NCBI RefSeq assembly: GCF_025999095.1
Contig: NZ_AP024678.1
Span: 899,527-963,526 of the forward strand
Direction of reading: 5' to 3'
DNA: 64,000 nt
Origin: Thermosynechococcus sp.
Lineage (GTDB): Bacteria > Cyanobacteriota > Cyanobacteriia > Thermosynechococcales > Thermosynechococcaceae
Shown here: positions 35,259-61,909 of the stretch, in pieces
How the letters are laid out: the number at the start of each line of letters is the position of its first letter
Position numbering within the stretch: position 1 is the stretch's first letter
Position numbers and translations under genes: made by a program
The notes under the pieces: model-generated
Told to the model about the DNA's origin: nothing
Databases searched by the model: none
Seen by the model: the letters and a program-made list of their open reading frames with translations, nothing else

Positions 35259-35429
35259 AGTCTGAATCGAGAGATTTTGCAACCCTTACTGAAAGAATTC
35301 CAGAAATAATAACAAGCGTTCAACTGTGAGTGCAACCTGCAGTTAATGTGCTAAAGTGTGACGGAGACTTGGCAAAAAACCGCTGTGCAAGCAGGTCAAG
35401 TGGTTAAAGAGGCATAAGCATTAATTATC

Positions 35430-36190: not shown

Positions 36191-36291
36191 ACTGATCAGC
36201 AGTCGACAGATAATATAGTAGCGAGATAATATGATAAATATTAACGGATCTGAGTTCTAAGAATAATTTATAGTTCAAATAAAATAAAATA

Positions 36292-37431: not shown

Positions 37432-37520
37432 AAATCGGTAAACACAATGTAATTTTGTTTTGCAACACTTAGTAGAGTCCTGCTTTTCTCTATCGTGCAA
37501 TTCAATCCTCACCCCCTGGT

Positions 37521-37631
37521 GTAAATCAGCGTTGGTTATGGGCCGTAGCGATTGTTGGACTGCTGCTGAGCTTTTTTACTCACAACCTGCTAGAGCACAC
37601 CTCACTTTCTTTATTTCTATGGCTATCCTGA
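37521..37631 (+). pseudogene. Duplicated C-terminal piece of Wzy-like gene
   Basis: A frame without a start codon reads VNQRWLWAVAIVGLLLSFF and continues to LEHTSLSLFLWLS before TGA, one membrane helix and tail. It is the second copy of the polymerase remnant upstream of GT copy 1. Here it keeps one continuous frame, whereas the first copy lacks some bases (near 36088) and has an extra T in a T-run. Confidence 0.5.
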
Positions 37632-37739
37632 TGTCTAATTCGGACTGATCAGCAGTCGACAGATAATATAGTAGCGAGATAATATGATAGATATTAACGA
37701 ATCTGAGTTCTAAAAATAATTTATAGGTCGAATGAAGTA

Positions 37740-38882: not shown

Positions 38883-38972
38883 AAGTTGGGCACAGCAGAG
38901 AGCGGGGTTGAGGTTATTTGAGAAAAATTTTCTTTCATCATCTGCGCCAGTAGGGGGTAAACTAACTGAACT

Positions 38973-46647: not shown

Positions 46648-47961
46648 ATGAGCAAAGCCATGACCCTTGAAACCTTGTTAAGTGAATTTGCCCGTGGCGT
46701 GCGGAATTTCCGTGGTGTTGATTTGGCAGGCAGTGTGTTTCCTTTAGTACAACTCAGCCATATTGATCTGGCGGGAGCCAATCTGCAGGGCATTAATTGG
46801 AGTGGGGCGGATTTGATCAAGGCTAACCTTGCCAATGCCAATCTGCGGGGAGCTAACCTGATTGGTGCAGATCTGAGTGGGGCTAACCTCACCGATGCTA
46901 ACTTGCAGGATGCCATTCTAAGTGGGGCTGTTTTGGTGGGAGCCTACCTCTCCCGAGCCAATTTGCAGCGAGCAGTCCTCAGCGGTGCCATCCTCAAGGG
47001 GGCAGTTCTCCACGACAGTAACCTCAAGGATACGAATGTGGTGGGCGCGGATTTGTCGGAGGCGGATTTGACTGGGGCGATCGCCCGCCGGCGGGACCTA
47101 GAGGAGGCCAAGCTCTCAGGCACCATCCTACCCAACGGTGAAGTGGTTTTTGATCAAGGGGAAGTTGAGGAGGTACCATTGCCACCCCCTACCGCAACTC
47201 CCCAGCCAATGGCGGTTGCTAACGAAACCACTCTCATTGAGTGGACAAATGAGCAGGTGATTCAAATGCTGATCCTGCAACAGCACCCCTTGCCCAGTAC
47301 CTATCAAAGTGCCGATTTGAAGGTGGTGGATTTGGGCAATCACTGTTATCAACTGCGCACTGTCACTGACACGGTCGTTGCGGTGGTGGAGGGAGCCAGT
47401 CTGGCCGATGAAAAAATAACCCTTTTTACCGAGGCACCCTTTGCAGATTTAGTGGCCAGCGTACTCCAAGCCCATTCATTTTTGCCCACCCAATACGTCA
47501 GTGAACCGCTGCCGGCATGGCAGTACGAGCAGGTGCCGATTCCCCAGGAGGGTGAGGTGCGTTTAGGAACGGCGCGGCAACTCTGGAAGACCTGGTGGCT
47601 GCTGCTAAAGTCGGCTGCTGCCGAGGAACAGCAGTCGCAATTGCAACTTTTGGTGGGTAAGGAGTGGCAGCCCATTCAGGAGATTGCTTTTTCACCCGCG
47701 GCGGCGGGGGGGCTGATCATTAAGACACCTGGGGGCGATCGCCACTATGCGGGGGATGCCTCACTGATTTGGCTAGAAAAGATGTCCCCGGCATCCCTAG
47801 CAACGAGTACCTCAGCACCAACTCTGACTGTTCCTCCCTGGAGGGGGCTACTGAAATTTGCCAATAACCGTTTGACGATTCAAACCGCAGCTGGACCAGT
47901 CTGTGTTGAGGGGGAAAATCTGAGGGTTATCATTGGTGGGCAAGCGATCGATCTCAACTAG
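46648..47961 (+). CDS. Pentapeptide-repeat protein with unknown C-terminal domain
   Basis: A 437-residue protein. Residues about 30-160 are about 25 pentapeptide repeats (LAGANLQGINWSGADLIKAN and on), about six coils of a right-handed beta helix. A Pro-rich linker follows (VPLPPPTATPQP, about 172-184), and then about 250 residues of mixed alpha/beta sequence that I cannot assign (WTNEQVIQMLILQQHPLPST, PPWRGLLKFANNRLTIQ). No signal peptide or membrane helix is seen. It is 5 bp upstream of the CCA-adding-type gene, so the pair is probably co-transcribed. GGTGAG precedes the start. Confidence 0.82.
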   Translation: MSKAMTLETLLSEFARGVRNFRGVDLAGSVFPLVQLSHIDLAGANLQGINWSGADLIKANLANANLRGANLIGADLSGANLTDANLQDAILSGAVLVGAYLSRANLQRAVLSGAILKGAVLHDSNLKDTNVVGADLSEADLTGAIARRRDLEEAKLSGTILPNGEVVFDQGEVEEVPLPPPTATPQPMAVANETTLIEWTNEQVIQMLILQQHPLPSTYQSADLKVVDLGNHCYQLRTVTDTVVAVVEGASLADEKITLFTEAPFADLVASVLQAHSFLPTQYVSEPLPAWQYEQVPIPQEGEVRLGTARQLWKTWWLLLKSAAAEEQQSQLQLLVGKEWQPIQEIAFSPAAAGGLIIKTPGGDRHYAGDASLIWLEKMSPASLATSTSAPTLTVPPWRGLLKFANNRLTIQTAAGPVCVEGENLRVIIGGQAIDLN

Positions 47962-47966
47962 CTCTG

Positions 47967-49247
47967 ATGGTCGTCGTTCAACCCTTTGATTTTAGCCGCT
48001 GGCCCCTTGCTGTCAGTGATTTACCCGCCGATACGTACCTTGTGGGGGGGGCGGTGCGGGATGCTCTCCTCGGTCGGACAACGTTGTACCCCGACTGGGA
48101 TTTTATTGTGCCCAGGGATGCTATTGCCCTGAGCAAAAAACTGGCGGATAAGTACAAGGCTGGCTGGGTTCTTTTGGATCGCGATCGCGGGATTGCCCGC
48201 TTAGTCTTTCCCCATACGACGGTGGACATTGCCCAGCGGCATGGTGAGACGCTCTTAGCCGATTTGCGCGATCGCGATTTTCGGATCAATGCCATTGCCT
48301 ACGACATTCACCACCACCACATTGTTGATCCCCTCGGTGGCCTCTTAGATTTGCAACGGCGCCAAATTCACTATGTGGCGCCAGAAAATCTTGCCGCTGA
48401 TCCATTGCGACTCCTACGCGCCTATCGCCAAGCCGCTCAACTCCAATTTACGATTACGCCCGAAACACGGCAGGTGATCCAAACCCTTGCCCCCCAACTG
48501 CGGCGAGTGGCCCCAGAACGGGTGCGGGTAGAACTCAGTTATCTCCTGAGTGCTGTTGAGGGTGCGGCTCAAGTGACCCTTGCCTTTCGCGATGGGGTAT
48601 TGGCGGTGTGGTTGCCGGCAGTAACCGAGGAGCGGATAACCCATTACCATGCCCTTGAGTCTACCCTAGGGAATTTCCCTTTCCCTGCCCTGTGGCCGGC
48701 GCTGACGAAATCCATTGCCGCAACGCATGCCCCCGGTGAACCCCAACGGCGAACCCTAGCGGCTTTGGCCAAGCTCACCTGCCTCGTGAATGCCAGCGAT
48801 CGCCAGGCTGCTGAGGAATTGACTGCCCTCACCTACACCACCGATGAAATTCGCATTGTCCAAGTTCTGTGCCGCCTCCTCAGCCACTGGCTAGTCCCCC
48901 TCCAGCAGCCCCTGAACCGTGAGCAAGCCTTCTATCTATTCCGCGCCGCAGGCAGCTCTTTTCCAGCCTTTGTTGCTCTTGCCCTTAGCCGTGGCATCCC
49001 CAAAGCGCATTTGGTACCGCTGGTCAAAGGGTGGTTAGACCCTAGGGATGCCATTGCCCATCCCCCCCAGTTGGTGCGAGGTGCTGATCTGGTGGAAGCC
49101 TTTCACGTCTCGCCAGGGCCGCGGGTGGGTGAATTGTTGCGAGCGGTGGAAGCGGCCCAAGCGCGGGGAGAAGTTAGCGATCGCCCCCAAGCCCTAGCCT
49201 ATGTGGCCCAACTCCTCAAGGGGGCAACTGAACCAAGGCCGAGTTAG
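47967..49247 (+). CDS. CCA tRNA nucleotidyltransferase / poly(A) polymerase family
   Basis: A 426-residue class-II nucleotidyltransferase. The head domain has YLVGGAVRDALLGR followed by the metal-binding pair in YPDWDFIV, and LRDRDFRINAIAYDI with the NTP-binding arginines. DPLRLLRAYRQAAQLQF and RVAPERVRVELSYLL mark the neck. It adds or repairs the CCA end of tRNA; some cyanobacteria split the A- and CC-adding functions between two such enzymes, and I cannot say which this is. There is no HD domain. It overlaps by 4 bp the stop of the convergent solute-binding gene. Confidence 0.85.
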   Translation: MVVVQPFDFSRWPLAVSDLPADTYLVGGAVRDALLGRTTLYPDWDFIVPRDAIALSKKLADKYKAGWVLLDRDRGIARLVFPHTTVDIAQRHGETLLADLRDRDFRINAIAYDIHHHHIVDPLGGLLDLQRRQIHYVAPENLAADPLRLLRAYRQAAQLQFTITPETRQVIQTLAPQLRRVAPERVRVELSYLLSAVEGAAQVTLAFRDGVLAVWLPAVTEERITHYHALESTLGNFPFPALWPALTKSIAATHAPGEPQRRTLAALAKLTCLVNASDRQAAEELTALTYTTDEIRIVQVLCRLLSHWLVPLQQPLNREQAFYLFRAAGSSFPAFVALALSRGIPKAHLVPLVKGWLDPRDAIAHPPQLVRGADLVEAFHVSPGPRVGELLRAVEAAQARGEVSDRPQALAYVAQLLKGATEPRPS

Positions 49248-50302
49248 GAACTCGTTAGAAAAATCTCTTGCCAAAGGGTGTCATAGGCCTTTTGGGTCGC
49301 CCCATCGAGGGGAAGCAGGACTTCACTCTTGGCAAAGGCCGGCGGCGTTGCAAAGGGAATATACCGGCTTAACAGGGTTTCCCTAAGATTCCTAACAAGG
49401 GGTGAAGGAGCATGGCTAAACTGACTCAGTTGTTCAGCAACCTGGGGTTGCCACCAGTAGTTCAACCAGGCCAGTGCTGCGGCACTGGGCTCCTGAGGAC
49501 AGACCCACAGATCCACCCAAAGGGCTGTGCCACTGGCTGGAAACACTGCCCCGTAGGTCTGGGGATCTTGCTGCAGGAGCGGCAGTAGATCCGTTGACCA
49601 ACCCACTGCCAATTGCGTGCTGCCGAGCATCAGCGGCTGCAAGTAGGCCTCAGAACTAAAGAAACGACAGCCTTGGCGCAGTTGCTGCAAGCGTTGCCGC
49701 AATTCCGGGTGGGTGGGGGGGCCGTTGTAGGATAGCCCCAGGGATTTCAGGGTTAGGCCAATCACTTCCCGCGGCTGATTCAACAGACTGTAGTGACCTT
49801 GAACCGCTGGATGCCATAGGGCATCCCAATCGGTCGGTTCCCAGCCCAAATTGGCAAAGAAATCGCGGCGATAAATGAGGGCGGTTGCCCCCCAGCGATA
49901 GGGGAGCCCCCATAAAGCATCCCCTTCGCTGAGGACTTGGAGAAGTGGCTGCCACGGTTCAGCCCAGTCAAGCCGGTTTTGAATTCGGGTTTTGGGAAGA
50001 GGGGCGATCTGGTGTTGGCTCATCGCCTGATTTAGCCAGGCGTCCCCGAGACTGAGAACGGCTGACCCTAGGTTGCCTGCTGCAAGGGTATGGGCTAAAG
50101 CTTGGGGGGTTTCCTGAAGCCGTAGATGAATACCCACACCCGCCTGTTGACGAAATCGCTGAATCAGTTGAAGCGGTAAGGATTTGCGCAGCAGATGAAC
50201 GGTTAGCCCGCCATTGGCACTTGCTTGGCAACCACTGAGGGCGATCGCCCCCAGGGCAAACAACCCCTGACAAAATTGCCGCCGCTGCATTAGCGTCGCC
50301 AC
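49244..50302 (-). CDS. Periplasmic solute-binding lipoprotein (PotD/spermidine-type)
   Basis: A 352-residue extracellular binding protein. The N-terminus [21 protein letters not shown] has twin arginines, a hydrophobic core and a lipobox (LSGC), so it is probably Tat-exported and lipidated. The core includes [20 protein letters not shown], a strand pattern typical of polyamine or Fe3+ type binding proteins, and [22 protein letters not shown]. No permease or ATPase gene is adjacent, so it is an orphan component in this window. Its start lies inside the 3' end of pgi (13-bp overlap), suggesting translational coupling. The ligand is unknown. Confidence 0.8.
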
Positions 50303-51879
50303 CGAAACTGTAATTCACTCAGCTGAGCGGGATCCCCCAGCTGCTCGATGCCGCGATCGTTGGCCACCAGGTGCCGCAGAATCAGGTAAATCCGCTCCAG
50401 TTGATCGGGCGCATTGACAGCGCGGGCGATCGCCCCCAAGTCGAGGGGCTCGTCACTTTGTTCTAACACTTTGACAATCTGCCGTTGCAGCGCCAAGTTG
50501 GCTGCCGCTGCTTTTTTGCCTGCTTCTACCCCCGGCTGATGGTAGGCATTGATATTCACCAAGAAGCCATAGAGACCCACCGCTCGCTCGTAGAGGGCAA
50601 TCAAGGCCCCCACGGTTTTTGGCGTCACCTCCGGAATGGTCACCGTCAGTGAGGGGCGATTTTTTTCATAGAGGGCTTGGCGCGTGCCCAGGAGCAGGCC
50701 ACTGAGGTAATCCCCCGCGGTAATCCCGGGCTCCACGTCAATGCTGGGCTCTTGACCATCCCGCAACACTTCAATAAAGGTAACAAAAAAGTTAGGTAGG
50801 CCATCCCGCAACTGCTGCACATAGGCGTGTTGATCGGTGGTTCCCTTGTTGCCATAGACGGCAATCCCTTGGTGGACAATGTTGCCGTCGAGATCTTTTT
50901 CCTTGCCGAGGGACTCCATGACCAACTGCTGCAAGTAGCGGCTAAACAGCAGCAGACTGTCTTTGTAAGGCAGGACAACCATATCTTTTTCCCCCCGACC
51001 CTTGCCGGCATGGTGCCACGCTAAGGCGAGGAGGGCGGCGGGATTTTGGCGGATATGCGGCACACGAGTTGCCTGATCCATCAATTTCGCTCCCATGAGG
51101 AGGTCATCAATGTCAATCCCTTGCAGGGCAGCGGGCAATAGGCCCACCGTTGAGAGTTCGGAGGTGCGTCCCCCCACCCAGTCAAACATTGGGAAAATGG
51201 CGAGCCAACCGTTGGACTCCGCTACTTGGGCAAGGCCACTGCCGGGCAGGGTGATGGCCACGGCGTGATCGGCAAAGGCCAGACCGGCGCGTTGGAAGCG
51301 GGCTTGGGCTTCTAGCATGCCGTTGCGGGTTTCCGGTGTCCCCCCCGATTTGGAAATGACCAGCACGAGTGTGGTGCGCAGGCGATCGCCCAACTGCGCA
51401 AAGACCCGCTCAAAGCCTGCTGGATCGGTGTTGTCCAAAAAATGAATGTTCAAGGGGGGATTCACGGGCGCGAGGGCCGAGGCCACAAACTGCGGACCCA
51501 GGGCAGACCCCCCAATGCCAATTGAGAGAATATCCGTAAAGCGACCCCCTTGAGGTGGGGCAATGGCGCCACTGTGGACTTGCTGGCTAAACTGCTTGAC
51601 TTGGGCGATCGCATCGCGGATTTGCAAGCGCAAGTCCGGACTGGGGGCTAAGTCTGGATCCCGCAGCCAGTAGTGACCCACCATGCGGCCTTCATCGGGG
51701 TTGGCGATCGCCCCCGCCTCCAATTCCTTCATTTGCTGAAAGGCGCGCTCAAAGGCTGGCTCTAGGCGACGGACCCCTTCCGGAGTCAGCCCCATGCGAC
51801 TGACATCCACATAAAATTCCAGTTCGGGGTGATAGTACAACCACTCTTGGTAATGCTGCCACAGAGCCAACGTATCCAT
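50290..51879 (-). CDS. pgi: Glucose-6-phosphate isomerase
   Basis: A 529-residue phosphoglucose isomerase joining glycogen metabolism, glycolysis and the oxidative pentose phosphate path. Conserved sugar-phosphate segments include [34 protein letters not shown] and the [11 protein letters not shown] loop; the catalytic region [18 protein letters not shown] is also clear. AGGA precedes the start. It is the first gene of a probable two-gene unit with the solute-binding lipoprotein. About 160 bp upstream of it, on the other strand, the restriction-like island starts. Confidence 0.95.
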
Positions 51880-52037
51880 AAAACCATTCCTGCCCTACGA
51901 TCTCAGGGTACCTCAACGACCGTCCCCTGCTGACTGTAAGTAAAATACTCCTAACTGAGGTCAAAGGTGCGCCCCTTGCAGTTACCGGTCCTCCTCTACC
52001 TCAGCCGCTCTTCCTTTGGCCCCACAAACAGATAGCA

Positions 52038-55000
52038 ATGCCCCAGATTTACGACAACATCAGCCAATCACTTGCCGATGGGCTGCGCCAATTCATCGGC
52101 AGCGCCCAGTCATGCGCGTTCTGCGTTGGCTACCTCAACCTGCGCGGTTGGGACCAATTGGCCGACCTCGTGGATGCGTTGCCCGGCGGGAGAGAAGAGG
52201 CCGCCTGCCGCGTGCTGGTGGGAATGCAACGCCCGCCCGAAGAGGAGATGAAAGCCCTCGCCCGCCTCAAGCGCGATCCCGAAACCGTTGATGGTCTGAA
52301 GCTTGCACAACTCAAGCGCCGCATGACCGAGAGCTTCAAGCAGCAACTGGAATTCGGCGTGCCGTCGGCGCAAGCGGAAAGCACCCTGCGGCGGCTGGCC
52401 GCGCAGCTTCGGGCGCACAAGGTGTTCCTCAAGGCGTTCCTGCCCTATCCGCTGCATGCCAAGCTCTATCTCGTGCGGCGCACCGATAGTGTGACCCCAT
52501 TGATCGGCTTTGTCGGCAGCAGCAACCTCACCCTGGCAGGCCTTTCTCAACAAGGCGAGCTCAACGTAGATGTGGTCGAACAAGACGCCGCCGCCAAATT
52601 ACAAGCGTGGTTTGACGAGCGCTGGCGCGATGAGCTGGCGATAGACCTTACCGATACGCTCGCCAACCTCATCGAGACCAGTTGGGTACGTACGGAGTTG
52701 GTTCGCCCCTACCTGCTCTACCTCAAGATCGCCCACCACCTCTCGGAAGAAGCCCGCCAGGGTGAGCGTGAGTTTCGCCTCCCTCCCATTTTCAGCGAGA
52801 AAGGTACCCCGCTGCTCGATTTTCAGGAGCGGGCCGTATCGCTGGCGGCCCACTACCTCTACCGCCGGGGCGGCGTCTTGCTCGGCGATGTCGTGGGACT
52901 GGGCAAAACGCTCATGGCCACCGCCATTGCCCGCATCTTTCAGGAGGACGACCAGAGCAACACGCTGGTCGTGTGCCCACCGAAGCTTGCACCCATGTGG
53001 GAGCAGTATCTGCAAAACTACGAAATCAACGGACGTGTCCTGTCGCTCGGCAAGGTAAGCGATGTCATTGGGCGCGACAACGCCCCCCGCTACCGGCTGC
53101 TCGTGATTGACGAAAGCCACAACCTGCGCAACCGCGAAAGCAAGCGCTACCGCGCCTTGCGCGACTACATCGAACGCAACGATCCACGTGTGCTGCTGCT
53201 CACCGCTACACCGTACAACAAACTCTTTACCGACCTCGGCAACCAACTGCGGCTTTTTCTGGACGAAAACCAAGACCTACACGTGCGACCCGAACGGTTC
53301 TTCCAAGGGTGGGCCGCGAGCGGAAAAAGCGAAATGGACTTCATCGCGTGCTTCCAGACGTCGCCGCACTCGTTGCGCGCCTTCGAGCAAAGCACCTTCC
53401 CGGAGGACTGGCGCGACCTGATGCGCCTGTTTCTCGTGCGGCGCACGCGCCAGTTCATCATCCGTCACTACGCCACGTTCGACCAAGCAAAGCAGCGCTA
53501 CTACGTTTTGCTGAATGGACAACCAGCGTACTTTCCTGTCCGGAAGCCCAAAAGACTCGAGTTCACCATTCGCGAGGACGACCCCACCGATCAGTACGCA
53601 CGACTGTTTCGCGACGAGGTCGTGCAGGTGATCGAAGGCCTCGCGCTGCCACGCTATGGCATGGCGCAGTACCTCGTCCAAGATGCCGAAAAACTCGCTC
53701 AAGGAGACGAAAAGCGCATCCTCGATAACCTCAACCGTGCGGGCCACCGCCTCATCGGATTTTGCCGCACCAACCTCTTCAAACGACTCGAATCCAGCGG
53801 CTATAGCTTCCTGCTTTCCGTGCGCCGGTACATTCTGCGCAACCTCGTTACGCTTCACGCGCTCGAAAATGGTCGCCCCATTCCCATCGGCACGCAGGAT
53901 GCCGCGATGCTCGATACTGCCGTCAGCGATTCCGACGACGACACCGCCGTCGTTCCCGATGACGTTGATCCCCCACTCGACGAAAGCGCTGCCGAGAGCG
54001 CAGCATCAGGAGCCGCTCTCGACCCACTGGCGCCGTTCAAAGCACGCGCTGCCGCTGTGTACAAGACCTACGTCCAGCAATTCCACAACCGCTTCGATTG
54101 GCTCGATGCGAAATTCTTCCGCCCTGCGCTCAAGCAAGCCCTCGAAGCCGACGCCACCGCGCTGCTGGCTATTCTTGCGAGCATGGGCGAGTGGGATCCC
54201 GGACACGACGCGAAACTTGGTGCCCTCGAAACGCTGCTGACGGAACATCACCCGAACGATAAGGTGCTCGTCTTCACCCAGTTTGCCGATACAGCCCAGT
54301 ATCTTGGGCAACAACTCCCTAAGCGAGGCATCACCGGTCTCGAGATCGTGACCAACCAGACCGGCGATCCGGTCGCGCTGGCGCGCCGCTTCAGCCCTTC
54401 AACCAACGGTGGCCTGCGTGCGGGCGAACAGGAGCTTCGCATCCTGATCGCCACCGATGTGCTGGCGGAAGGGCAAAACCTACAGGACTGCCACATCATC
54501 GTCAACTACGACCTCCCTTGGGCGATCATTCGCCTCATTCAGCGTGCCGGCCGCGTGGACCGTATTGGCCAGAAGCACGACACCATCCACGTGTACTCCT
54601 TCCTCCCCGCCGAAGGCGTCGAGCGCATCATCCGCCTACGTAAACGGCTTTTCGAGCGCCTGCAAGCGAATCAGGAAGTCATCGGCACCGACGAAACCTT
54701 CTTCGGCGAGGAAGCAGCGAATAGACTGCGCGATCTCTACACCGAAAAAGCCGGCACGCTCGACGACGACCAATCCGACGAGGACATTGACCTGGCGAGC
54801 CTGGCGCTGCAAGTTTGGAAGAGCGCTTCTGAGACCGATCAAAAGGAAGCCATCGCCCTGCCGCCCATCGTCTCTGCCACACGCGCACTGGCAGAGACTG
54901 CCGATCCTGATCAGCATCCTCCGGGCGTCATCACCTACCTGCGTTATCCCGATGGCACGGATGCGCTGATACGGGTGGACAAAGATGGCAACCTGGTTTC

Positions 55001-55508
55001 CCAGTCCATCTCGGCCATTTTCCGCGCGGCTGCCTGCGCGCCAGATGAACCAGCGCTGCCGCGGGCAGAGAACCATCACGCCCTTGTCGCCCGCTGCGCA
55101 GAGATTGCCACCGACGAGCAGACCGTCCTCGGCGGCCAGCTCGGCCCGCCGCGCAGTGTCCGCCGCAAGCTCTACGAGCGGCTCGATCGCTACCGCGAGC
55201 AGCTTCAGGCGAAGCCCACGCTCTTCACCTCAGAGACCTTGCAACAGCTCGACCGGGTGCTTGATCTCATTTACCGATATCCACTCAAGAATGCAGCCAA
55301 AGAAGCCATCAGCCGGCAGATGCGCCTGGGCATCACCGATGAAGCGCTGCTCGAGCTGGTAATGCGCCGCGCAGCAGATGAGAACCTCTGTGAAATAACC
55401 GCCGAAGAGACCCAAGCGCCAACCGAACCCAAAGTCATCTGCTCGATGGGATTAGCCTCGGCTGCGCCTTCGAATCATTCGGCTCTCACAGGAGATGTGC
55501 AACAATGA
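52038..55508 (+). CDS. PLD-nuclease/SNF2-family helicase fusion (defence motor)
   Basis: A 1156-residue protein. Residues about 1-200 form a phospholipase D-like nuclease domain with HxK (His140, Lys142) and GSSNLTLAGLSQQGELNV, the pattern of PLD nucleases. Residues about 260-880 are an SF2 SNF2-type helicase: Walker A GDVVGLGKT (283-291), DESH box (358-361), motif III LLLTATPYNKL, and motif VI IQRAGRVDRIGQ (834-845). The C-terminal 270 residues are helical and unassigned. It overlaps the methyltransferase gene by 4 bp, so the two form one operon. Likely a DNA translocase that cuts unmodified DNA. It has no HIP1 octamer and differs in codon use from the backbone, which suggests acquisition. 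Not seen in it: DUF1998 or other DISARM DrmA features. Confidence 0.85.
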   Translation: MPQIYDNISQSLADGLRQFIGSAQSCAFCVGYLNLRGWDQLADLVDALPGGREEAACRVLVGMQRPPEEEMKALARLKRDPETVDGLKLAQLKRRMTESFKQQLEFGVPSAQAESTLRRLAAQLRAHKVFLKAFLPYPLHAKLYLVRRTDSVTPLIGFVGSSNLTLAGLSQQGELNVDVVEQDAAAKLQAWFDERWRDELAIDLTDTLANLIETSWVRTELVRPYLLYLKIAHHLSEEARQGEREFRLPPIFSEKGTPLLDFQERAVSLAAHYLYRRGGVLLGDVVGLGKTLMATAIARIFQEDDQSNTLVVCPPKLAPMWEQYLQNYEINGRVLSLGKVSDVIGRDNAPRYRLLVIDESHNLRNRESKRYRALRDYIERNDPRVLLLTATPYNKLFTDLGNQLRLFLDENQDLHVRPERFFQGWAASGKSEMDFIACFQTSPHSLRAFEQSTFPEDWRDLMRLFLVRRTRQFIIRHYATFDQAKQRYYVLLNGQPAYFPVRKPKRLEFTIREDDPTDQYARLFRDEVVQVIEGLALPRYGMAQYLVQDAEKLAQGDEKRILDNLNRAGHRLIGFCRTNLFKRLESSGYSFLLSVRRYILRNLVTLHALENGRPIPIGTQDAAMLDTAVSDSDDDTAVVPDDVDPPLDESAAESAASGAALDPLAPFKARAAAVYKTYVQQFHNRFDWLDAKFFRPALKQALEADATALLAILASMGEWDPGHDAKLGALETLLTEHHPNDKVLVFTQFADTAQYLGQQLPKRGITGLEIVTNQTGDPVALARRFSPSTNGGLRAGEQELRILIATDVLAEGQNLQDCHIIVNYDLPWAIIRLIQRAGRVDRIGQKHDTIHVYSFLPAEGVERIIRLRKRLFERLQANQEVIGTDETFFGEEAANRLRDLYTEKAGTLDDDQSDEDIDLASLALQVWKSASETDQKEAIALPPIVSATRALAETADPDQHPPGVITYLRYPDGTDALIRVDKDGNLVSQSISAIFRAAACAPDEPALPRAENHHALVARCAEIATDEQTVLGGQLGPPRSVRRKLYERLDRYREQLQAKPTLFTSETLQQLDRVLDLIYRYPLKNAAKEAISRQMRLGITDEALLELVMRRAADENLCEITAEETQAPTEPKVICSMGLASAAPSNHSALTGDVQQ

Positions 55509-58500
55509 ACACCCTGCTCCAACGCATCCAGTCGTGCCTGAACGCCGCCGGCTCACCGCAGCAGCTCAGCAATCTCTTCTGCCGAACCCTCCACTGGGGC
55601 GCACCGCGCGGCTTGACGCCGCGCACGCTCGATCTCGGCACGCCCATCAACCAGCGCATCACGCTCCATCCGGTAGCGCAACTCTCAGGGCTGCCGGTGT
55701 ATCGCGTCGAGTGGCCTGACGACCAGCTTCCCGGTGTTACCGCCCGCCGCGCGGTCCAGCGCGTCCTCAAACCCATCCACGCTGAGCATCTTCTGTGCTA
55801 TGTAACCTCCGACCAGCGACAAGTTGCCTTCACCTGGGCGCGCCAGCGATCTGACGGCAAGATCGAACTCCGCACCCTGCCCTACGAGGTCGGCTCCGCT
55901 GCCCGCACCACCATTGAACGCCTGGGCGAACTTGCCTTTAGCCTCGACGAGCTGATGTCTGGTGAGCCGCCGATCACCACCCTCACCGACAAACTCGATC
56001 GCGCCTTCGATGTTGAAGCAGTTACCCAGCGGTTCTATCAGGAACTTGCCAACTGGTTCTTCTGGGCGCGCGAGCATGTGCAGTTCCCGATGCCGCCGAC
56101 CGAAAAGAACTCTGAAGCCTACATTTCCCAAAGCCTCATTCGCCTGATTACCCGCCTCATCTTCTGCTGGTTTGTGAAAGAGATGGGGTTGATCCCACGC
56201 GAACTCTTCGATCTAGGCACACTCTCAAGGCTCCTCAAAAACGGCGACAAGCTGCCGGAAAGCAAGAACACCACCTTCTATAAAGCGATCCTGCAAAACC
56301 TCTTCTTCGCCACGCTCAATCAGGAAATCGGCAAGCGGCAGTTTCGCAAACGCAACAAAGACCCACGCGGGCGCGATCCCCACTGTGGCATCACCAACCT
56401 CTACCGCTACGAAGACTACTTCAACAATCCCGACCAATTTCTGCAGCTGGCGAAAAATATCCCCTTCCTCAATGGCGGACTGTTTGAGTGCTTGGATCGG
56501 GTCTATCGCACCGAAGAGAACCGACCTACCATCCGCATCGATGGCTTCTCCGATCATCCGAAAAACCCGCTCTTTATGCCCGATTTTCTGTTCTTCAGCG
56601 ACGAGCAGGTGGTGGACCTTTCCCAAGCCTACGGCCAAACCAAATTCAAGCGCGCTACTGTGCGCGGTTTGATCCACATCTTCCATCGCTACAACTTCAC
56701 GGTCACTGAATCCACACCGCTCGATCAGGAGGTGGCGCTCGATCCTGAATTGGCTGGAAAAGTCTTTGAGAATCTGCTGGCGGCCTACAACCCGGAAACC
56801 GCCACGACCGCACGGAAAGCCACAGGTTCCTATTACACCCCGCGTTCCATCGTGGAGTACATGGTGGATGAGTCACTGTTGGCGTATCTCAAGCCGAAGC
56901 TCCAGGCGGTTCATCCGTCAGACACCCATGAGTCCCGCCTCTGCCATCTGCTGGCCTACAACGATGAACCGCACCAGTTCAGCCCTGAAGAGGTGGAAAC
57001 GCTCATTACCGCCCTTGATAATCTGAAGGCGATTGACCCGGCCTGCGGTTCGGGTGCATTCCTGATGGGGCTACTGCATAAGCTGGTCTTCATCCTAGGC
57101 AAACTCGACCCACGCAACGAAGGCTGGAAAGAGAAACAGATTGCCAAAGCCCAAGAAATCCCCGACGCCACTATCCGCGATAAAGTGCTCGCGGACATCG
57201 AGCAGGCCTTTGCCGCAGGTGAACTGGATTACGGCCGCAAGCTCTATCTCATTGAGAACTGCCTCTACGGCGTGGACATTCAGCCCATCGCTGTTCAAAT
57301 CGCCAAAATGCGCTTCTTCATCTCGCTAACCGTGGATCAGAAAGTGGATCCGTCTGCCCCCAACCTGGGCATCCGCCCGCTGCCGAACCTCGAAACCAAA
57401 TTCGTCGCCGCCAACACGCTCATCGGCATCGAGCGACCGGCACAGTTCGCCTTTCGCACCCCGAAGATTGAGGAACTTGAGCGCGAACTGGCACGCGTGC
57501 GCGAGGCCCATTTCACAGCCCGCACCCCGCAAACCAAGCAGAAGTACCGCGAGTGCGATGCCCAGCTCCGCGCCGAGCTCGCCGAGTTATTGAAGCACGA
57601 CGGCTTGGGAAGCCAAACAGCGGAGAAGCTCGCCGCCTGGGACCCTTACGACCAAAATGCTTTTGCCAACTGGTTTGACCCGGAATGGATGTTCGGAATC
57701 CGCAATGACTTCGATATCGTGATTGGCAACCCGCCTTATATCTCAACAAAAGGCATAGACGCAGAAAACAAAAAACAACTTGAAAAACATTTTGGTTTTA
57801 CTGACGATACTTATAATCATTTCTTTTTTAAGGGACTTGAATTATTAAAAGATGAAGGTATTTTAACATACATTACTTCAAAAAGCTATTGGACCATACA
57901 AACCAAAAAAAATCTTCGTGAACTTTTGCTTAAAAATACTATACTTCAGATTTTTGATACTGCCAATCCGTTTGAAAATGCAATGGTCGATACCGGTGTG
58001 GTTATTGTTAAAAAAGCTACACCAACACCCACACATGAAGTTGTATTCTTAGATGGCAAAACGAGTATTACCCAACCACAAAAGTACACCATCCAGCAAA
58101 ACGATTATGCCACTGCTCCCAATAAAGTAATATTTGTACCCACCGATTTTAACAAAAAAATATATCAACGCTTGGGAAAAACGGTTAACGAATTACTAAA
58201 CCAATGGTGGGATAAAATTTCCACCAGCAAAAACATAGATAAACATAAAAAAGAACTTGAAACATACCGCAATTCGTTAAAACCAGGTGATATTACGCTA
58301 CTGGGATTAATTACCGAAGGTGGTCAGGGACTTGCTACAGCTAACAATGGTAAATACATTGGGGTATTGGAAGGCACCAAATGGGCTGATAATGTTCGTA
58401 AGCAACGCCCCGAAAAACTTCTGTTAGCAACGAAATTTTGCAAAGAAAAAGGCATACGAACCAAAAACGATGCCCAACAGTTTCTGAACAACCTAAACGA

Positions 58501-59218
58501 AAAAGAAATTCGACAGCTTTTTGACGATCTAAAAGAAAAATACGGACGCGATATTTTTGGGCAGGGCTGGCTGTACCGCATTGTAAGTCCCGATGAAATA
58601 GCTGATGTAGACACCCTTACCAACGATGAAAAACTCAACGGTATTGACGGCGAAAAAACTTTTGTGCCCTACGACAAAGGCGATAAAGATGGCAACCGCT
58701 GGTATGCTCCTACACCTTATTACATCGATTGGAGCAAAGAAAATGTGAAATTTTTAAAAGAAAATTCAGGGAAAAAAGGCGAAGGAATGCCTGTTGTACG
58801 CAATCCACAATTCTACTTCCGGGAAGGTTTTTGCTGGACAGATGTTAGTTATGCAATTAGATGTAGAATAAAGGAAAATAGTCTGCACGATGTTCTTAGT
58901 ATGTCATTATTTCCAATTTTTTCTTTGATAAATTCAAAGTTTATTGTAAGTCTATTAAACTCGGATTTTATGTCAACGTATTTAAATGCTTTTGTGAATA
59001 CGACTGTTCATTTCCAAATCAACGATGCCCGTCAATTGCCGATAATTATTCCCACTGCAGAGCAATTAAAAGTGTTTGAAGATATATTTAACCGTGCGGT
59101 TTCGGTGCAAAAGCAAAAATTTGCGGGCAAGCTGAGCGAAAAAGAGGCGGAAGCAAAATTAGAAGAAATACAGCGGGAGTTGGATGAAAGGGTGTTGGAG
59201 ATGTATGGGGTAACATGA
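55505..59218 (+). CDS. Eco57I-class adenine-specific DNA methyltransferase, mosaic
   Basis: A 1237-residue gamma-type N6-adenine methyltransferase. The SAM motif AIDPACGSGAFLMGLLHKL is near residue 509 and the catalytic NPPY at 742-745; GSYYTPRSIVEYMVDESL lies just before motif I. The N-terminal about 430 residues are helical with a family-specific LANWFFWAREHVQFP. The C-terminal half (about 750-1237) would hold the target-recognition domain. DNA is GC-rich up to the NPPY codons and strongly AT-rich with poly-A/Lys codons afterwards, to about 59215, so the recognition half came from a different source. Together with the upstream helicase it would make a restriction-modification or related anti-phage pair. 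A 20-codon in-frame stretch follows the TGA. Confidence 0.9.
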   Translation: MNTLLQRIQSCLNAAGSPQQLSNLFCRTLHWGAPRGLTPRTLDLGTPINQRITLHPVAQLSGLPVYRVEWPDDQLPGVTARRAVQRVLKPIHAEHLLCYVTSDQRQVAFTWARQRSDGKIELRTLPYEVGSAARTTIERLGELAFSLDELMSGEPPITTLTDKLDRAFDVEAVTQRFYQELANWFFWAREHVQFPMPPTEKNSEAYISQSLIRLITRLIFCWFVKEMGLIPRELFDLGTLSRLLKNGDKLPESKNTTFYKAILQNLFFATLNQEIGKRQFRKRNKDPRGRDPHCGITNLYRYEDYFNNPDQFLQLAKNIPFLNGGLFECLDRVYRTEENRPTIRIDGFSDHPKNPLFMPDFLFFSDEQVVDLSQAYGQTKFKRATVRGLIHIFHRYNFTVTESTPLDQEVALDPELAGKVFENLLAAYNPETATTARKATGSYYTPRSIVEYMVDESLLAYLKPKLQAVHPSDTHESRLCHLLAYNDEPHQFSPEEVETLITALDNLKAIDPACGSGAFLMGLLHKLVFILGKLDPRNEGWKEKQIAKAQEIPDATIRDKVLADIEQAFAAGELDYGRKLYLIENCLYGVDIQPIAVQIAKMRFFISLTVDQKVDPSAPNLGIRPLPNLETKFVAANTLIGIERPAQFAFRTPKIEELERELARVREAHFTARTPQTKQKYRECDAQLRAELAELLKHDGLGSQTAEKLAAWDPYDQNAFANWFDPEWMFGIRNDFDIVIGNPPYISTKGIDAENKKQLEKHFGFTDDTYNHFFFKGLELLKDEGILTYITSKSYWTIQTKKNLRELLLKNTILQIFDTANPFENAMVDTGVVIVKKATPTPTHEVVFLDGKTSITQPQKYTIQQNDYATAPNKVIFVPTDFNKKIYQRLGKTVNELLNQWWDKISTSKNIDKHKKELETYRNSLKPGDITLLGLITEGGQGLATANNGKYIGVLEGTKWADNVRKQRPEKLLLATKFCKEKGIRTKNDAQQFLNNLNEKEIRQLFDDLKEKYGRDIFGQGWLYRIVSPDEIADVDTLTNDEKLNGIDGEKTFVPYDKGDKDGNRWYAPTPYYIDWSKENVKFLKENSGKKGEGMPVVRNPQFYFREGFCWTDVSYAIRCRIKENSLHDVLSMSLFPIFSLINSKFIVSLLNSDFMSTYLNAFVNTTVHFQINDARQLPIIIPTAEQLKVFEDIFNRAVSVQKQKFAGKLSEKEAEAKLEEIQRELDERVLEMYGVT

Positions 59219-59281
59219 AAGTATGATGAGGCGGTGGTGGAGCTGGTGCGGGCGCGGTTGGAGAGGGCGCGCAGCGTGTAG
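59219..59281 (+). other. In-frame open extension beyond methyltransferase stop
   Basis: After the TGA at 59216-59218 the same frame continues for 20 codons, KYDEAVVELVRARLERARSV, to TAG at 59279. Base composition returns to GC-rich exactly here, as in the first half of the gene. A related coding-like stretch (ILQLLRAPLEKADSA then stop) precedes the second REP/RAYT unit at about 60018-60065. It may be the original C-terminus left behind when the AT-rich segment replaced the recognition half. Confidence 0.35.
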
Positions 59282-59302
59282 GGGCGAAAGATTTTTCGCC
59301 CC
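59281..59302. repeat. REP-like hairpin upstream of RAYT
   Basis: GGGGCGAAA-gatt-TTTCGCCCC, a 9-bp perfect stem with a 4-base loop, 24 bp before the RAYT start. The 24 bp between hairpin and ATG (GATACGTA, then a T-run and TTAGCC) is conserved in the second unit at 60065-60110, so hairpin and gene form one mobile-type module. Confidence 0.65.
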
Positions 59303-59326
59303 ACCGTCGATACGTATTTTTTAGCC

Positions 59327-59977
59327 ATGCCCTACGACCCGCAAAAGCACCATCGGCGCAGCATTCGGCTGAAGGGGTACGATTACACCCAGCCGGGGGC
59401 GTATTTTGTGACCATTTGCACGCAGGGGCGGGCGTGTCTGTTTGGCCAGGTGGTGGAGGGCCAGATGCGGTTGAACGAATTCGGCGAAATCGTTGCCCAA
59501 ACCTGGTATGACCTACCCAACCATATTCCCAATGTGGCATTGGATGCATGCATCGTCATGCCCAATCATATGCATGGGATTATCGTCATCACCGATGCGT
59601 CCCCACAAATTGTAGGGGCAATTCATGAATTGCCCCTACATGAATTGCCCCTACATGAATTGCCCCTACATGAATTGCCCCTACAATCCCAACCGCACCA
59701 ACAATTACCTCAACATGAACGGCGTCGCATGTTGTTGCCGAAAATCATTGGACGGTTCAAAATGGCATCAGCCAAGGGCATCAACAAAATCCGGAATACC
59801 CCCGGCATCCCTGTCTGGCAACGCAACTATTACGAACACATCATCCGCACCGAAGACGCCCTGCAACGCATCCGCCAATACATCGTCACCAACCCCCTGC
59901 GCTGGCACCTCGACCGCGAGAACCCCAACCCCACGGGCAGAAACCCCGACGAGGAAATGTGGTTCGGCAGTGCATGA
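59327..59977 (+). CDS. REP-associated tyrosine transposase (RAYT)
   Basis: A 216-residue Y1/HUH-type protein of the RAYT (TnpA_REP, IS200-like) family. It has HHRRSIRLKGYDYTQPGAYF, the HUH motif in VMPNHMHGIIVI, and WQRNYYEHIIRTEDALQRIRQYIVTNP with the catalytic tyrosine region. RAYTs cut and join single-stranded REP hairpins. Residues about 99-119 contain four tandem HELPL repeats encoded by an expanded REP palindrome, between the HUH strand and the catalytic helix, so the expansion may affect activity. It follows the methyltransferase by about 100 bp. Confidence 0.88.
   Translation: MPYDPQKHHRRSIRLKGYDYTQPGAYFVTICTQGRACLFGQVVEGQMRLNEFGEIVAQTWYDLPNHIPNVALDACIVMPNHMHGIIVITDASPQIVGAIHELPLHELPLHELPLHELPLQSQPHQQLPQHERRRMLLPKIIGRFKMASAKGINKIRNTPGIPVWQRNYYEHIIRTEDALQRIRQYIVTNPLRWHLDRENPNPTGRNPDEEMWFGSA
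59611..59684. repeat. REP palindrome and 15-bp minisatellite inside the RAYT gene
   Basis: 59611-59640 is a perfect 30-bp palindrome with arm TGTAGGGGCAATTCA. Its right half, unit ATGAATTGCCCCTAC, is then repeated four times without a gap or mismatch (59625-59684). At 15 bp the unit keeps frame and encodes HELPL four times. The GGGGC/GCCCC core is the same as in the REP hairpins upstream. Confidence 0.85.
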
Positions 59978-60064
59978 AGTGGCATAGCGATGGGAGCCGA
60001 GGCGTTGACCTGGAGCGATCCTTCAGCTGCTGCGCGCACCGCTGGAAAAGGCAGACAGCGCTTA

Positions 60065-60085
60065 GGGGCGAAAATTTCTTGCCCC
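60065..60085. repeat. Second REP-like hairpin
   Basis: GGGGC and GCCCC flank an imperfect AT-rich interior (GAAAATTTCTT), a degenerate version of the hairpin at 59281-59302. It lies 24 bp before the ATG of the truncated second RAYT, the same spacing as in the first unit. Confidence 0.5.
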
Positions 60086-60109
60086 AGTGTGGATACGTAA
60101 TTTTTAGCC

Positions 60110-60260
60110 ATGCCCTACGACCCGCACAGGCACCATCGGCGCAGCATTCGCCTGCCCCGATATGACTACACCCAGCCGGCGGCGTATTCTGTGATCCTTG
60201 TTAGGAAGGATTGGATGTGTTTTTTTGCGAAAGTGGTGGCAGCGGAAATCGTAAACCAAT
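60110..60260 (+). pseudogene. Truncated second RAYT copy
   Basis: MPYDPHRHHRRSIRLPRYDY is almost identical to the first RAYT, then similarity fades (AAYSVILVRKDWMCFF, aligned with GAYFVTICTQGRACLF) and ends about 50 codons in, before the HUH motif. The frame runs on to 60463 only as antisense of ndhD1. The truncation lies about 50 bp from the ndhD1 stop and marks the right edge of the acquired segment. Confidence 0.7.
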
Positions 60261-60307
60261 GCCAGCAAGAAATTGCTATTTTTGCCATGCCGCCGTCGAT
60301 GCGTTTA

Positions 60308-61909
60308 TTACAACTTGCTCCAATCACTCACAGTGTCCAAGCGTGGGGCCACCATTGGCAGGATTGCCAGGGGCTGCTCTCTCTGCTGAGCCAGTGTCGG
60401 TACCACCTCCCGCACGCGAGCAATCACTTGACCTGTCGTTGCATCGTAAATTTGCGTCAATAGCTTCGGATAGAGGCCAATGCCAATAATTGGCACCAAC
60501 AGGCAGGCAATGATAAACACTTCACGGGGTTCAGCATCCACAAGGGCTTCATGCTCGACCAGTTCCTTATTTTCGGGGCCGTAGAAAATTTCTCGCAGCA
60601 TCGAGAGCAGGTAAATCGGTGTCAAAATCACCCCCACTGCCGCCAAAAAGACCACAATCACACGGAAGGGCAAAGAATAGGCATCGCTGGTGGCAAAGCC
60701 AATAAAGACCATCAGTTCAGCCACAAAGCCACTCATCCCCGGCAAGGCAAGGGAGGCCAAGGAGCAGGCCGTAAACATGGCAAAGATCTTCTTCATTTTC
60801 TGGCCAACGCCGCCCATTTCCTCCAGAATCAGTGTATGCGTACGATCATAGGTGGCCCCGACCAAGAAGAAAAGGCTGGCCCCAATTAAGCCGTGGGACA
60901 CCATTTGCAGCACCGCCCCACTCATACCCAAATTGGTAAACGAGGCAATACCAATCAGCACAAAGCCCATGTGGGAAATCGAAGAGTAGGCAATTTTGCG
61001 CTTGAGATTGCGCTGGGCATAGGAGGTCAGCGCCGCATAGATGATGTTGACCACACCCAAAATCACCAAAACGGGGGCAAACTTGGCATGGGCTGCCGGC
61101 AGCATATCCACGTTCATACGAATAAGGGCATAGCCTCCCATCTTCAGGAGAATCCCCGCCAGGAGCATGTGCACTGGCGCCGTTGCCTCACCGTGGGCAT
61201 CCGGCAGCCAGGTATGTAGGGGGACAATCGGCAGCTTGACGCCGTAGGCCACCAAAAACCCTGCATAGACCAGCAATTGAAAACCAATGGCATAGTCCTT
61301 GGCCGCCAAGGTTTGCATATCAAAGCTGACGGTGTCGCCATAGAAGGCCATGGCCAAGCCCGCCACCAAAATAAAGAGGGAGCTACCAGCGGTGTAGAGA
61401 ATGAACTTTGTTGCCGCGTATTGACGCTTGTGGCCGCCCCAAATTGCCAAGAGCAGGTACACCGGGATGAGTTCCAGTTCCCAGGCCAGGAAAAACACCA
61501 GCATATCCTGCACGGCAAAAACAGCAATCTGGCCACCGTACATCGCCAGCATCAAAAAGTAAAACAGCCGCGGTTTCAGGGTCACTGGCCAAGCCGCCAA
61601 AATCGCCAGCGTCGTAATAAAGCCCGTGAGTAAAATCAACGGCATTGAGAGCCCATCGGCTCCCACTGACCAGCGCAGGCCAATTTCGGGAATCCAATCA
61701 TAGCTTTCCCACAGCTGCAGGCCAGGGGTGTTTAGGTCATAGAAATAGGTGAAGGCATAGACAATCAAGGCAAAGTCAATCAACCCCACCGTCAGGGCAT
61801 ACCAGCGGATTGGGCGTCCTTTGCCCGTGGCATCTGGAATGAAGGGAATCGCCAAGGCAGCCACAATCGGAAACAGGATAATTGTTGTCAGCCAAGGAAA
61901 GGTACTCAT
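60308..61909 (-). CDS. ndhD1: NAD(P)H-quinone oxidoreductase subunit 4
   Basis: A 533-residue proton-pumping membrane subunit of NDH-1 with about 14 helices. The start at 61909 gives [19 protein letters not shown]; the longer reading from 62008 is unlikely and overlaps ndhF1. The conserved [19 protein letters not shown] segment with the key glutamate and the [19 protein letters not shown] loop are present. Pairing directly behind ndhF1 is the arrangement of the D1/F1 pair used in respiratory/cyclic electron flow, not the CO2-uptake D3/F3 or D4/F4 pairs. The C-terminal end is 50 bp from the RAYT remnant. Confidence 0.93.

What the first reader, a model, noticed from the sequence alone, without database searches (positions are those of the whole stretch)
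52038..59218. Two-gene PLD-SNF2 helicase plus adenine methyltransferase defence module
A PLD-type nuclease fused to a SNF2 motor overlaps by 4 bp with a 1237-aa Eco57I-class methyltransferase. Known relatives cover parts only: type ISP enzymes fuse a nuclease, motor and gamma methylase in one chain; DISARM class 1 has a SNF2 helicase and adenine methylase but also DrmA, DrmB and DrmC, which are absent here. This pair may be a compact, split translocating restriction system in which PLD cuts and the methylase half provides specificity. Its position on an island without HIP1 octamers fits a transferred defence unit.
Basis: partly seen in the sequence, partly recalled or inferred. Interest (0 to 1): 0.72.

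Follow-up and report, generated by a model that had tools for sequence, protein, structure and literature searches.

The report
Split restriction enzyme with swappable reader

Summary
In detail: a 1156-aa PLD-SNF2 protein (52038-55508) overlaps a 1237-aa Eco57I-type adenine methyltransferase (55505-59218) by 4 bp, on a HIP1-free insert between pgi and an NDH-1 gene. About 10% of sampled genomes in each of two phyla, and some plasmids, carry the motor; most sampled loci have the same two genes and no third conserved one. Active sites are conserved. Tested features exclude DISARM, DUF499 (BREX-related), Type ISP, I and III. The layout was noted for Lactococcus in 2018, so this is a variant of ATP-dependent restriction-modification.

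New is the modularity. The methyltransferase is a mosaic: residues 1-165 belong to a domain family found in 54 of 55 methyltransferases beside this motor clade; the catalytic body is of another clade (p-AU 3e-5); the C-terminal half was exchanged at NPPY, since a sister strain matches to base 57742 and then differs wholly. In two further lineages, one being Synechocystis PCC 6803 versus 7338 (motors 97% identical), the first 105-115 residues are kept and the rest differs. I infer an N-terminal docking domain, an exchangeable specificity module, and motor-driven PLD cleavage of unmethylated DNA. Docking and cleavage are untested.

The parts
52038..55508 (+). PLD-SNF2 restriction/motor protein, 1156 aa (clade A)
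52092..52625 (+). PLD nuclease domain, residues 19-196; H140, K142, GSSN 160-163, E174 and N176 invariant in 33 of 33 aligned motors (D150 in 23 of 33)
52824..53216 (+). SNF2 motor lobe 1 (GLGKT 287-291, DESH 358-361)
54213..54569 (+). Motor lobe 2, Helicase_C 726-844 (motif VI QRxGRxDR)
55505..59218 (+). Adenine methyltransferase/specificity protein, 1237 aa, motif I DPACGSG 511 before NPPY 742
55505..55999 (+). N-terminal domain, residues 1-165: of the clade-A family, predicted docking domain for the motor; no Pfam match, no conserved nuclease motif
56036..56036 (.). Junction 1 (residue about 177): DNA identity with G634 (77.8%) and the Kapabacteria-labelled contig (82.5%) ends here
56000..57739 (+). 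Catalytic body, residues 166-745, of clade B (mean 54%, range 38-58% to ten clade-B cores; mean 25% to 29 clade-A cores)
57728..57739 (+). Motif IV NPPY, residues 742-745
57739..57742 (.). Junction 2, just past NPPY: DNA identity with G388 ends at 57742, with G562 and G330 at 57739; GC falls from 0.60 (both genes up to here) to 0.37
57740..59215 (+). Exchanged C-terminal half, residues 746-1237 (rest of catalytic domain, target recognition, weak TaqI_C 1072-1180), GC 0.37
51930..60345 (.). Approximate limits of the insert; 6 of 9 other same-genus genomes have 0.8-0.9 kb here, 3 not resolved

Best explanation
A two-subunit, ATP-dependent restriction-modification system. The second protein recognises and methylates an adenine in a short asymmetric site; its C-terminal half reads the sequence. 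Its N-terminal ~105-165 residues dock the PLD-SNF2 protein. At an unmethylated site the docked SNF2 motor is switched on, moves along the DNA, and two PLD domains form the dimeric cutter. Because docking is confined to the N-terminus, the body or only the C-terminal half can be exchanged by recombination to give a new specificity that the same motor obeys. Shown by sequence: layout, conserved active-site residues, purifying selection, domain exchange. Published methylation of GA(m6A)GGC is assigned to one relative by elimination. Inferred: docking, translocation, cleavage, antiphage role.
For: No third conserved gene: apart from the motor/methyltransferase cluster (61 of 64 loci), no ORF family is in more than 7 of 64 loci (ORFs of 90 aa or more, E 1e-6, so a fast-evolving part could be missed). 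PLD, SNF2 and methyltransferase motifs conserved. Purifying selection. N-terminal profile A: window 57.8 bits, E 2.5e-18; profile B -2.9 bits; core profile B 808 bits against A 137 (window not in the profiles). Independent set: profile A in 27 of 27 methyltransferases beside clade-A motors from a second phylum, profile B in none. Pooled 54 of 55 and 0 of 55 (up to 27 of these rows had built profile A). Clade-B motors have N-terminus B in 10 of 10 (by construction). Tree conflict p-AU 2.7e-5 (cores) and 9.5e-8 (motors). Exchange with the N-terminus kept: window/G634, Synechocystis 6803/7338 (motor 97%, DNA 93.5% to codon 105), L049/L051. C-terminal exchange at NPPY. In the parts of pSYSX viewed, two methyltransferase loci are annotated, one being the known type I system, so M.Ssp6803IV, GA(m6A)GGC (passages of PMC7296061 and PMC6604393), is most likely the one beside the motor.
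Against: No interaction, cleavage or phage experiment. The N-terminus is usually the end next to the motor gene, so retention may partly reflect linkage. In two pairs (L142/L144: motor 79%, N-terminus 36%; L151/L154: 76%, 37%) the N-terminal allele was not kept; only the family was. Within clade A the N-terminus tracks motor distance only slightly better than the core does (Spearman 0.75 against 0.71). L056 scored only 17 bits. Of 38 clade-A motors of 950 aa or more, ten lack a methyltransferase of that length in the stretch: eight have a shorter one (915 aa and intact in L100; the rest short, broken or cut by a contig end) and two (L043, L058) none. G330, the relative with the same N-terminus/body combination, has broken frames. 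Three of 16 loci of clade-B-type methyltransferases (L083, L090, L097) show no PLD-SNF2 motor, and in L085 it is on the other strand. The N-terminal fold is unassigned. The M.Ssp6803IV assignment is by elimination on an incomplete gene table.
Confidence: 0.68

Rival explanations
1. Linkage only: the N-terminus is kept because it is the end of the gene nearest the motor and supplies homology for crossovers; it has no docking role.
For: Junctions lie in the 5' part of the gene; the N-terminal allele was lost in two pairs.
Against: N-terminal families A and B do not recognise each other (at most 5.3 bits), yet family A goes with the clade-A motor in 54 of 55, also in L053 and L061, where the methyltransferase lies upstream of the motor, and across gaps up to 2.6 kb.
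Confidence: 0.25
2. The methyltransferase is a self-sufficient Type IIG enzyme and the PLD-SNF2 protein is an independent or Type IV nuclease.
For: PADLOC's best profiles for these methyltransferases are REase_MTase_IIG; SauUSI, a translocating nuclease, cleaves DNA without a methyltransferase subunit (PMC7913695 abstract and section titles; absence of a partner recalled).
Against: No nuclease motif is conserved in the N-terminus (invariant F25, L29, W31, P76 only, 24 rows); 28 of 28 long pairs on one strand; the 2018 Lactococcus paper also found no restriction domain in its methyltransferase.
Confidence: 0.1
3. Remnant or module of a larger system such as DISARM class 1 or Type-2 BREX-related (DUF499 + DUF3780).
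For: Motor domains are related (DrmD 144 bits, cut-off 610); the same genome has a DUF499 system.
Against: DUF499 is present in 19 of 41 genomes with the motor, in none on the motor's contig within 190 kb (in drafts it is on other contigs); no third conserved neighbour.
Confidence: 0.04
4. Modification without restriction: the pair works in regulation or replication control.
For: No defence assay exists; another (type I) methylation affects gene expression in Synechocystis 6803 (PMC7296061 passages).
Against: Invariant PLD active site, patchy distribution, plasmid carriage, exchange of the specificity half.
Confidence: 0.05

Closest known systems
Lactococcus lactis pLd8 orf33-orf34 (PMC6098607, section 10 read)
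   Same: PLD-SNF2 protein beside a methyltransferase with recognition domain (pfam12950) and no nuclease; [quoted passage not shown]
   Different: pLd8 itself was not compared. In a Lactococcus plasmid of the same layout (pJM1F) the motor is 29% identical and the methyltransferase N-terminus matches neither profile A nor B; section 10 has no docking, exchange or distribution analysis of this pair
Type-2 BREX-related (BR/Hma) systems (PMC12839542, sections 28 and 30 read)
   Same: N-terminal HKD/PLD nuclease fused to a Swi2/Snf2 motor, with an N6-methyltransferase
   Different: Those have a DUF499 ATPase and nearly always DUF3780; no DUF499 lies beside these motors, DUF3780 was not scanned for in every neighbour
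Type ISP (LlaGI, LlaBIII; PMC4872093 abstract, PMC4666363 search listing)
   Same: Nuclease, SF2 motor, methyltransferase and recognition domain working together
   Different: One chain with an Mrr nuclease and an internal coupler; here two chains and a PLD nuclease
DISARM class 1 (PMC9142583 passages; class details recalled)
   Same: SNF2 protein (DrmD) and adenine methyltransferase (DrmMI)
   Different: No DrmA, DrmB or DrmC beside the window pair
CglI/NgoAVII (PMC5737866 abstract, PMC4267653 listing)
   Same: Nuclease (PLD type: recalled) and helicase-like ATPase, asymmetric site
   Different: Nuclease and motor in separate proteins; methyltransferase is a third gene
SauUSI (PMC7913695 abstract and section titles)
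   Same: Dimerising nuclease domain plus translocating helicase-like ATPase in one protein
   Different: Recognises methylated DNA by its own domain; no methyltransferase partner (recalled)
Type III (EcoP15I, PMC4490356 listing)
   Same: Two subunits, Mod and Res, one-strand methylation
   Different: Here motif I precedes NPPY and the nuclease is PLD; that Mod enzymes have the other motif order and Res a PD-(D/E)XK nuclease is recalled

Membership tests
DISARM class 1 | DrmA and DrmB core genes beside the methyltransferase | tested here: not met
   Window flanks are housekeeping genes (7 proteins); in relatives no third family in more than 7 of 64 loci (DrmA/DrmB profiles were not run there)
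DISARM class 1 | SNF2 helicase DrmD over the curated cut-off | tested here: not met
   144 bits against 610
Type-2 BREX-related (BR) system | HKD nuclease fused N-terminally to Swi2/Snf2 motor | tested here: met
Type-2 BREX-related (BR) system | DUF499 ATPase in the locus | tested here: not met
   19 of 41 genomes have DUF499, none on the motor's contig within 190 kb
Type-2 BREX-related (BR) system | DUF3780 gene in the locus | tested here: inconclusive
   No DUF3780 profile was run over the neighbours; no conserved third family was seen
BREX | PglX over the curated cut-off, with BrxC and PglZ | tested here: not met
   PglX 142 bits against 500; no other large conserved neighbour
Type ISP | Single polypeptide with Mrr nuclease, motor and methyltransferase | tested here: not met
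   Two ORFs; nuclease is PLD
Type I | Separate HsdS specificity subunit | tested here: not met
   No HsdS among the scanned flanks; recognition-like region is in the methyltransferase
Type III | Mod with NPPY-type motif before motif I and Res with PD-(D/E)XK nuclease (definition recalled) | tested here: not met
   Motif I 511 before NPPY 742; PLD nuclease
Type IIG | Nuclease and methyltransferase in one chain | tested here: inconclusive
   No Pfam nuclease, no conserved nuclease motif in 24 N-termini; N-terminal fold unassigned
Type IV (SauUSI-like) | Cleaves modified DNA | not testable with these tools
   needs biochemistry
ATP-dependent restriction-modification (general) | Motor, nuclease, methyltransferase and recognition domain together | tested here: met
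   by sequence only, recognition domain match is weak
ATP-dependent restriction-modification (general) | ATP-driven cleavage of unmethylated target DNA | not testable with these tools
   needs biochemistry
PADLOC C3a139 'HKD+Snf2' | Profile match over most of its length | tested here: met
   6.8e-40 over profile 90-761 of 948; 33 of 33 aligned motors match at E <= 1e-20; a label, not a defined system

The most novel reading that the evidence does not exclude
The first ~110-165 residues are a portable plug: a dedicated adaptor domain that licenses unrelated gamma-type methyltransferases (at least three core types, A, B and D, seen here) to serve one and the same PLD-SNF2 motor. Evolution uses it as a socket for exchanging whole methyltransferase bodies, with a second exchange point at NPPY for the recognition half. 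Enzymes now filed as Type IIG would then, in part, be modification-specificity subunits of a distinct two-subunit class.
Probability: 0.5. Interest if true: 0.78.

Novelty: new variant of a known kind. Interest (0 to 1): 0.62.

Why it matters
It makes a testable proposal for how a motor-nuclease is plugged onto a methyltransferase, with natural swap experiments already done by evolution, one in the model cyanobacterium Synechocystis PCC 6803 against PCC 7338. If the N-terminus is a docking plug, restriction specificity could be reprogrammed by joining it to other methyltransferases, and some enzymes labelled Type IIG would need reclassifying.

Tried and rejected
Viral contigs: none of four stretches that matched a pattern encoded a relative of the motor. 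Phage records gave 6 partial hits of 50,697, none over 80% coverage. The model of the motor C-terminus was poor (pLDDT 61) and was not used. The N-terminal model is fair (pLDDT 81) but no Foldseek match has E <= 0.001; VIA-align best Z 6.4 to racemases, with restriction- or splicing-endonuclease-like rows at Z 4-5: no fold assigned. A profile search of the N-terminus against PDB sequences gave one hit, E 0.31. Distance correlation inside clade A did not separate N-terminus from core well. That most methyltransferase hits lay away from clade-A motors first looked like unpaired enzymes; of the 16 loci then fetched, 13 have a divergent PLD-SNF2 motor or a piece of one. The Kapabacteria-labelled contig carries the locus at both ends with broken frames, so I used it only by pieces; its assignment is the record's own.
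Full report
Observation. Pfam finds PLDc_2, SNF2 and Helicase_C in the first, Eco57I and weak TaqI_C in the second. Their best PADLOC profiles are C3a139 'HKD+Snf2' and REase_MTase_IIG; curated DrmD and PglX models match far below cut-off (144 of 610 and 142 of 500 bits). HIP1 octamers number 66 in the window against 0.97 expected and are missing between 51711 and 62233. The genome is one contig of 2.498 Mb.

The insert. All 11 genomes of the genus searched, the window's own included, have the neighbouring phosphoglucose isomerase gene. The pair is at this site in the window's genome and in G388. Of the nine others, six show both flanks with 0.8-0.9 kb between them; three could not be resolved on the fetched stretch, and a search of all 11 for the methyltransferase found no other close copy, only a partial 38-48% match in G386. 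In the two carriers the genes differ more (dS 0.57-0.83) than the flanking pgi and ndhD-like genes (dS 0.15-0.17), with dN/dS 0.15 (motor), 0.18 (N-terminus) and 0.13 (core): both genes look functional, and the insert has a partly separate history from its flanks.

Distribution. In the window's phylum 41 of 386 genomes (24 of 142 genera) have the motor at E <= 1e-60; this counts the window's own genome, and in one of the 41 (G380) the only match is a divergent clade-C motor at about 32%. In the phylum of G394 (the genome of L035, labelled Rubrobacter) 35 of 350 have it at E <= 1e-80. In plasmid records 87 of 72,556 match at E <= 1e-20, 19 over at least 80% of the query, among them Synechocystis, Anabaena, Pelobacter and Rhodococcus. 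Phage and viral collections gave no full-length relative.

Anatomy of the unit. Of 38 loci with a clade-A motor of 950 aa or more, 28 have a methyltransferase of 950 aa or more, all on the same strand, downstream in 26 and upstream in 2 (L053, L061). Eight of the other ten have a shorter one (915 aa and intact in L100, the rest short, broken or cut by a contig end), two (L043, L058) none. Apart from the motor/methyltransferase cluster no ORF family occurs in more than 7 of 64 loci, so no third component is conserved at that sensitivity. Small ORFs lie between the genes in some cyanobacteria, such as a VapC toxin or members of one family that I read as DUF29 because the remnant in the own genome scores as DUF29. 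DUF499, the hallmark of BREX-related systems, is in 19 of 41 of these genomes but in none on the motor's contig within 190 kb. PLD residues H140, K142, G160, S161, S162, N163, E174 and N176 are invariant in 33 of 33 aligned motors; the classical HKD aspartate is not strict (D150 in 23 of 33). Walker and DExH residues are conserved, and 55 and 56 of 57 methyltransferases beside clade-A motors carry motif I and NPP[YFW].

A mosaic methyltransferase. Close relatives of the window's methyltransferase (16 of 386 genomes) aligned mostly from residue ~130-210 on, and 13 of the 16 loci fetched have a divergent PLD-SNF2 motor or a piece of one (clade B, mostly 26-28% identity). Region-wise BLAST found residues 1-165 only in methyltransferases beside clade-A motors, and residues 166-850 closest to clade B. 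Profiles built without the window gave: N-terminus A 57.8 bits (E 2.5e-18), N-terminus B -2.9 bits; core A 137 bits, core B 808 bits. Scores of the training rows are by construction. The independent test is 30 loci from the second phylum: 27 have a methyltransferase (the three without are on short contigs that end soon after the motor), all 27 match N-terminus A (37-145 bits), none matches B; 23 have core A, two core B (L133, L134), two a third core D (L132, L155; 59% to each other). I fetched 30 stretches from 28 of the 35 matching genomes; six with partial matches were left out and G394 was already held as L035. Pooled, 54 of 55 segmented methyltransferases match A above 20 bits (L056 17 bits) and 0 of 55 match B; up to 27 of these rows had built profile A, and one row (L100) is called core D there only by a score rule.

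Trees. I used 34 rows: 22 beside clade-A motors (chosen from 57), 10 clade B, 2 clade C. Motors of clade A, the window included, form one side of a branch (SH-aLRT 100). In the core tree the window, G388 and L134 fall inside the clade-B cores (95 and 100), L132 with L155 apart (100). The AU test rejects one clade of all cores beside clade-A motors (p 2.7e-5) and one clade of motors with core B (p 9.5e-8). These are quick trees under LG+G4 with long-branch warnings, and the groups came from the same data.

Exchange seen in DNA. Junction 1: the window matches G634 (L132) at 77.8% and the Kapabacteria-labelled contig at 82.5% from 52038 to 56036 and then stops, but for short scraps; motors are 79% and N-termini 80% identical to G634, cores 26%. 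The same pattern occurs in Synechocystis PCC 6803 pSYSX against PCC 7338 pSyn7338-2: DNA 93.5% identical through the motor, the small genes between and the first 105 methyltransferase codons, then different bodies (motor 97%, N-terminus 77%, core 42%, C-terminus 25%); and in L049 against L051 (92, 72, 45, 24%; DNA match to about codon 115). AU tests reject sister cores for both sets (p 8.7e-5 and 5e-75). Counter-cases: L142/L144 and L151/L154 have motors 79% and 76% alike but N-termini of 36% and 37%, so the rule holds for the family, not always the allele.

Junction 2: the window and G388 share 82% (N-terminus) and 83% (core) amino acid identity up to NPPY and no BLAST match beyond it; the DNA match ends at 57742, and against G562 and G330 at 57739, while NPPY occupies 57728-57739. 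Against G562 a 32% match over 74 residues remains in the C-terminal half, as expected of the shared fold. The window's C-terminal half has GC 0.37 against 0.58 before it in the gene; an unsupervised segmentation put one change point at residue 745, with 0 of 2000 permutations as strong. I infer that the C-terminal half came recently from an AT-rich source. Other pairs with alike motors and cores but unlike C-terminal halves are L158/L161 (81, 83, 38%) and L146/L156 (77, 73, 27%).

Function of a relative. On pSYSX the methyltransferase beside the motor (47827-51129) is one of two annotated methyltransferase loci; the other is the type I system (the last kilobase was not viewed and the gene table is incomplete). 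Papers state that pSYSX encodes M.Ssp6803IV and M.Ssp6803V, that V is the type I enzyme and that IV makes GA(m6A)GGC (PMC6604393, PMC6560206, PMC7296061; passages seen; the primary paper is not held). By elimination the partner methylates one strand of an asymmetric site. That this gene is slr6050 is recalled. PADLOC's IIG model PDLC03628 matches it end to end (2662 bits).

N-terminal domain. 24 aligned N-termini share F25, L29, W31 and P76 and no nuclease signature; no Pfam family matches the window's at E <= 1, and matches of other members are weak and scattered. The model (pLDDT 81) is a mixed alpha/beta domain without a convincing PDB match.

Mechanism. The likeliest reading is a two-subunit translocating restriction enzyme: methyltransferase = modification, recognition and, through its N-terminus, docking; PLD-SNF2 = motor and cutter. 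Type ISP enzymes do this in one chain with a coupler domain (PMC4666363, search listing), SauUSI shows a dimeric nuclease with a translocating helicase-like ATPase (PMC7913695 abstract), and CglI a separable nuclease and motor (PMC5737866 abstract). Docking, translocation and cleavage are inference.

Prior art and novelty. The two-gene layout was noted for Lactococcus pLd8 as a putative type II system and likened to DISARM (PMC6098607 section 10). HKD-Snf2 motors with methyltransferases are also known within DUF499 systems (PMC12839542 sections 28 and 30; PMC7641849 passages). In the papers and passages I saw from ten searches nothing describes a motor-specific N-terminus or body exchange in this pair; none of these searches was worded for docking or domain exchange, and only openly licensed papers are held, so novelty of that part is provisional. 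I file it as a new variant of a known kind.

Noticed in passing
L163 (Lactococcus cremoris pJM1F) 5425-9616: Another PLD-SNF2 + methyltransferase pair has a reversed TaqI-like specificity gene (47% identical to methyltransferase residues 799-1018), 321-nt inverted arms 71% alike, and an Mpi-type invertase beside it: a likely invertible specificity cassette.
   Followed up: partly
L102 8897-18285 (own genome C1 about 755896-765284): The same genome holds a separate three-gene DUF499 + DUF1156 methyltransferase + PLD_Helicase system, about 190 kb from the pair.
   Followed up: partly
L101 8858-9813 (own genome C1 about 456857-457812): Remnant of a clade-A motor C-terminus (37%, two stops) next to a DUF29 gene; ORFs that look like DUF29 lie beside intact systems in other cyanobacteria, so this may be a decayed second copy.
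   Followed up: partly
window 59624-59685; L117 9782-10120: REP-associated transposase ORF contains a perfect 15-bp tandem array, 4.1 copies in the window and 22.6 in the sister strain (different unit); stretches of its DNA also occur beside the Kapabacteria-labelled, G634 and G562 loci.
   Followed up: partly
window 60105-60463: Second, shortened copy of the start of the REP-associated transposase.
   Followed up: no
window 32382-39406: A second 7-kb stretch without HIP1 octamers.
   Followed up: no
L092 5793-10283: One 1496-aa ORF joins a PLD-SNF2 N-terminal part (28% to the window's) to a clade-B-like methyltransferase: a possible natural fusion or deletion.
   Followed up: no
L083, L084, L086, L093: Clade-B-type methyltransferases are followed by a 484-603 aa gene in four loci; the L086 member resembles RecF/SMC-type ATPases.
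   Followed up: partly
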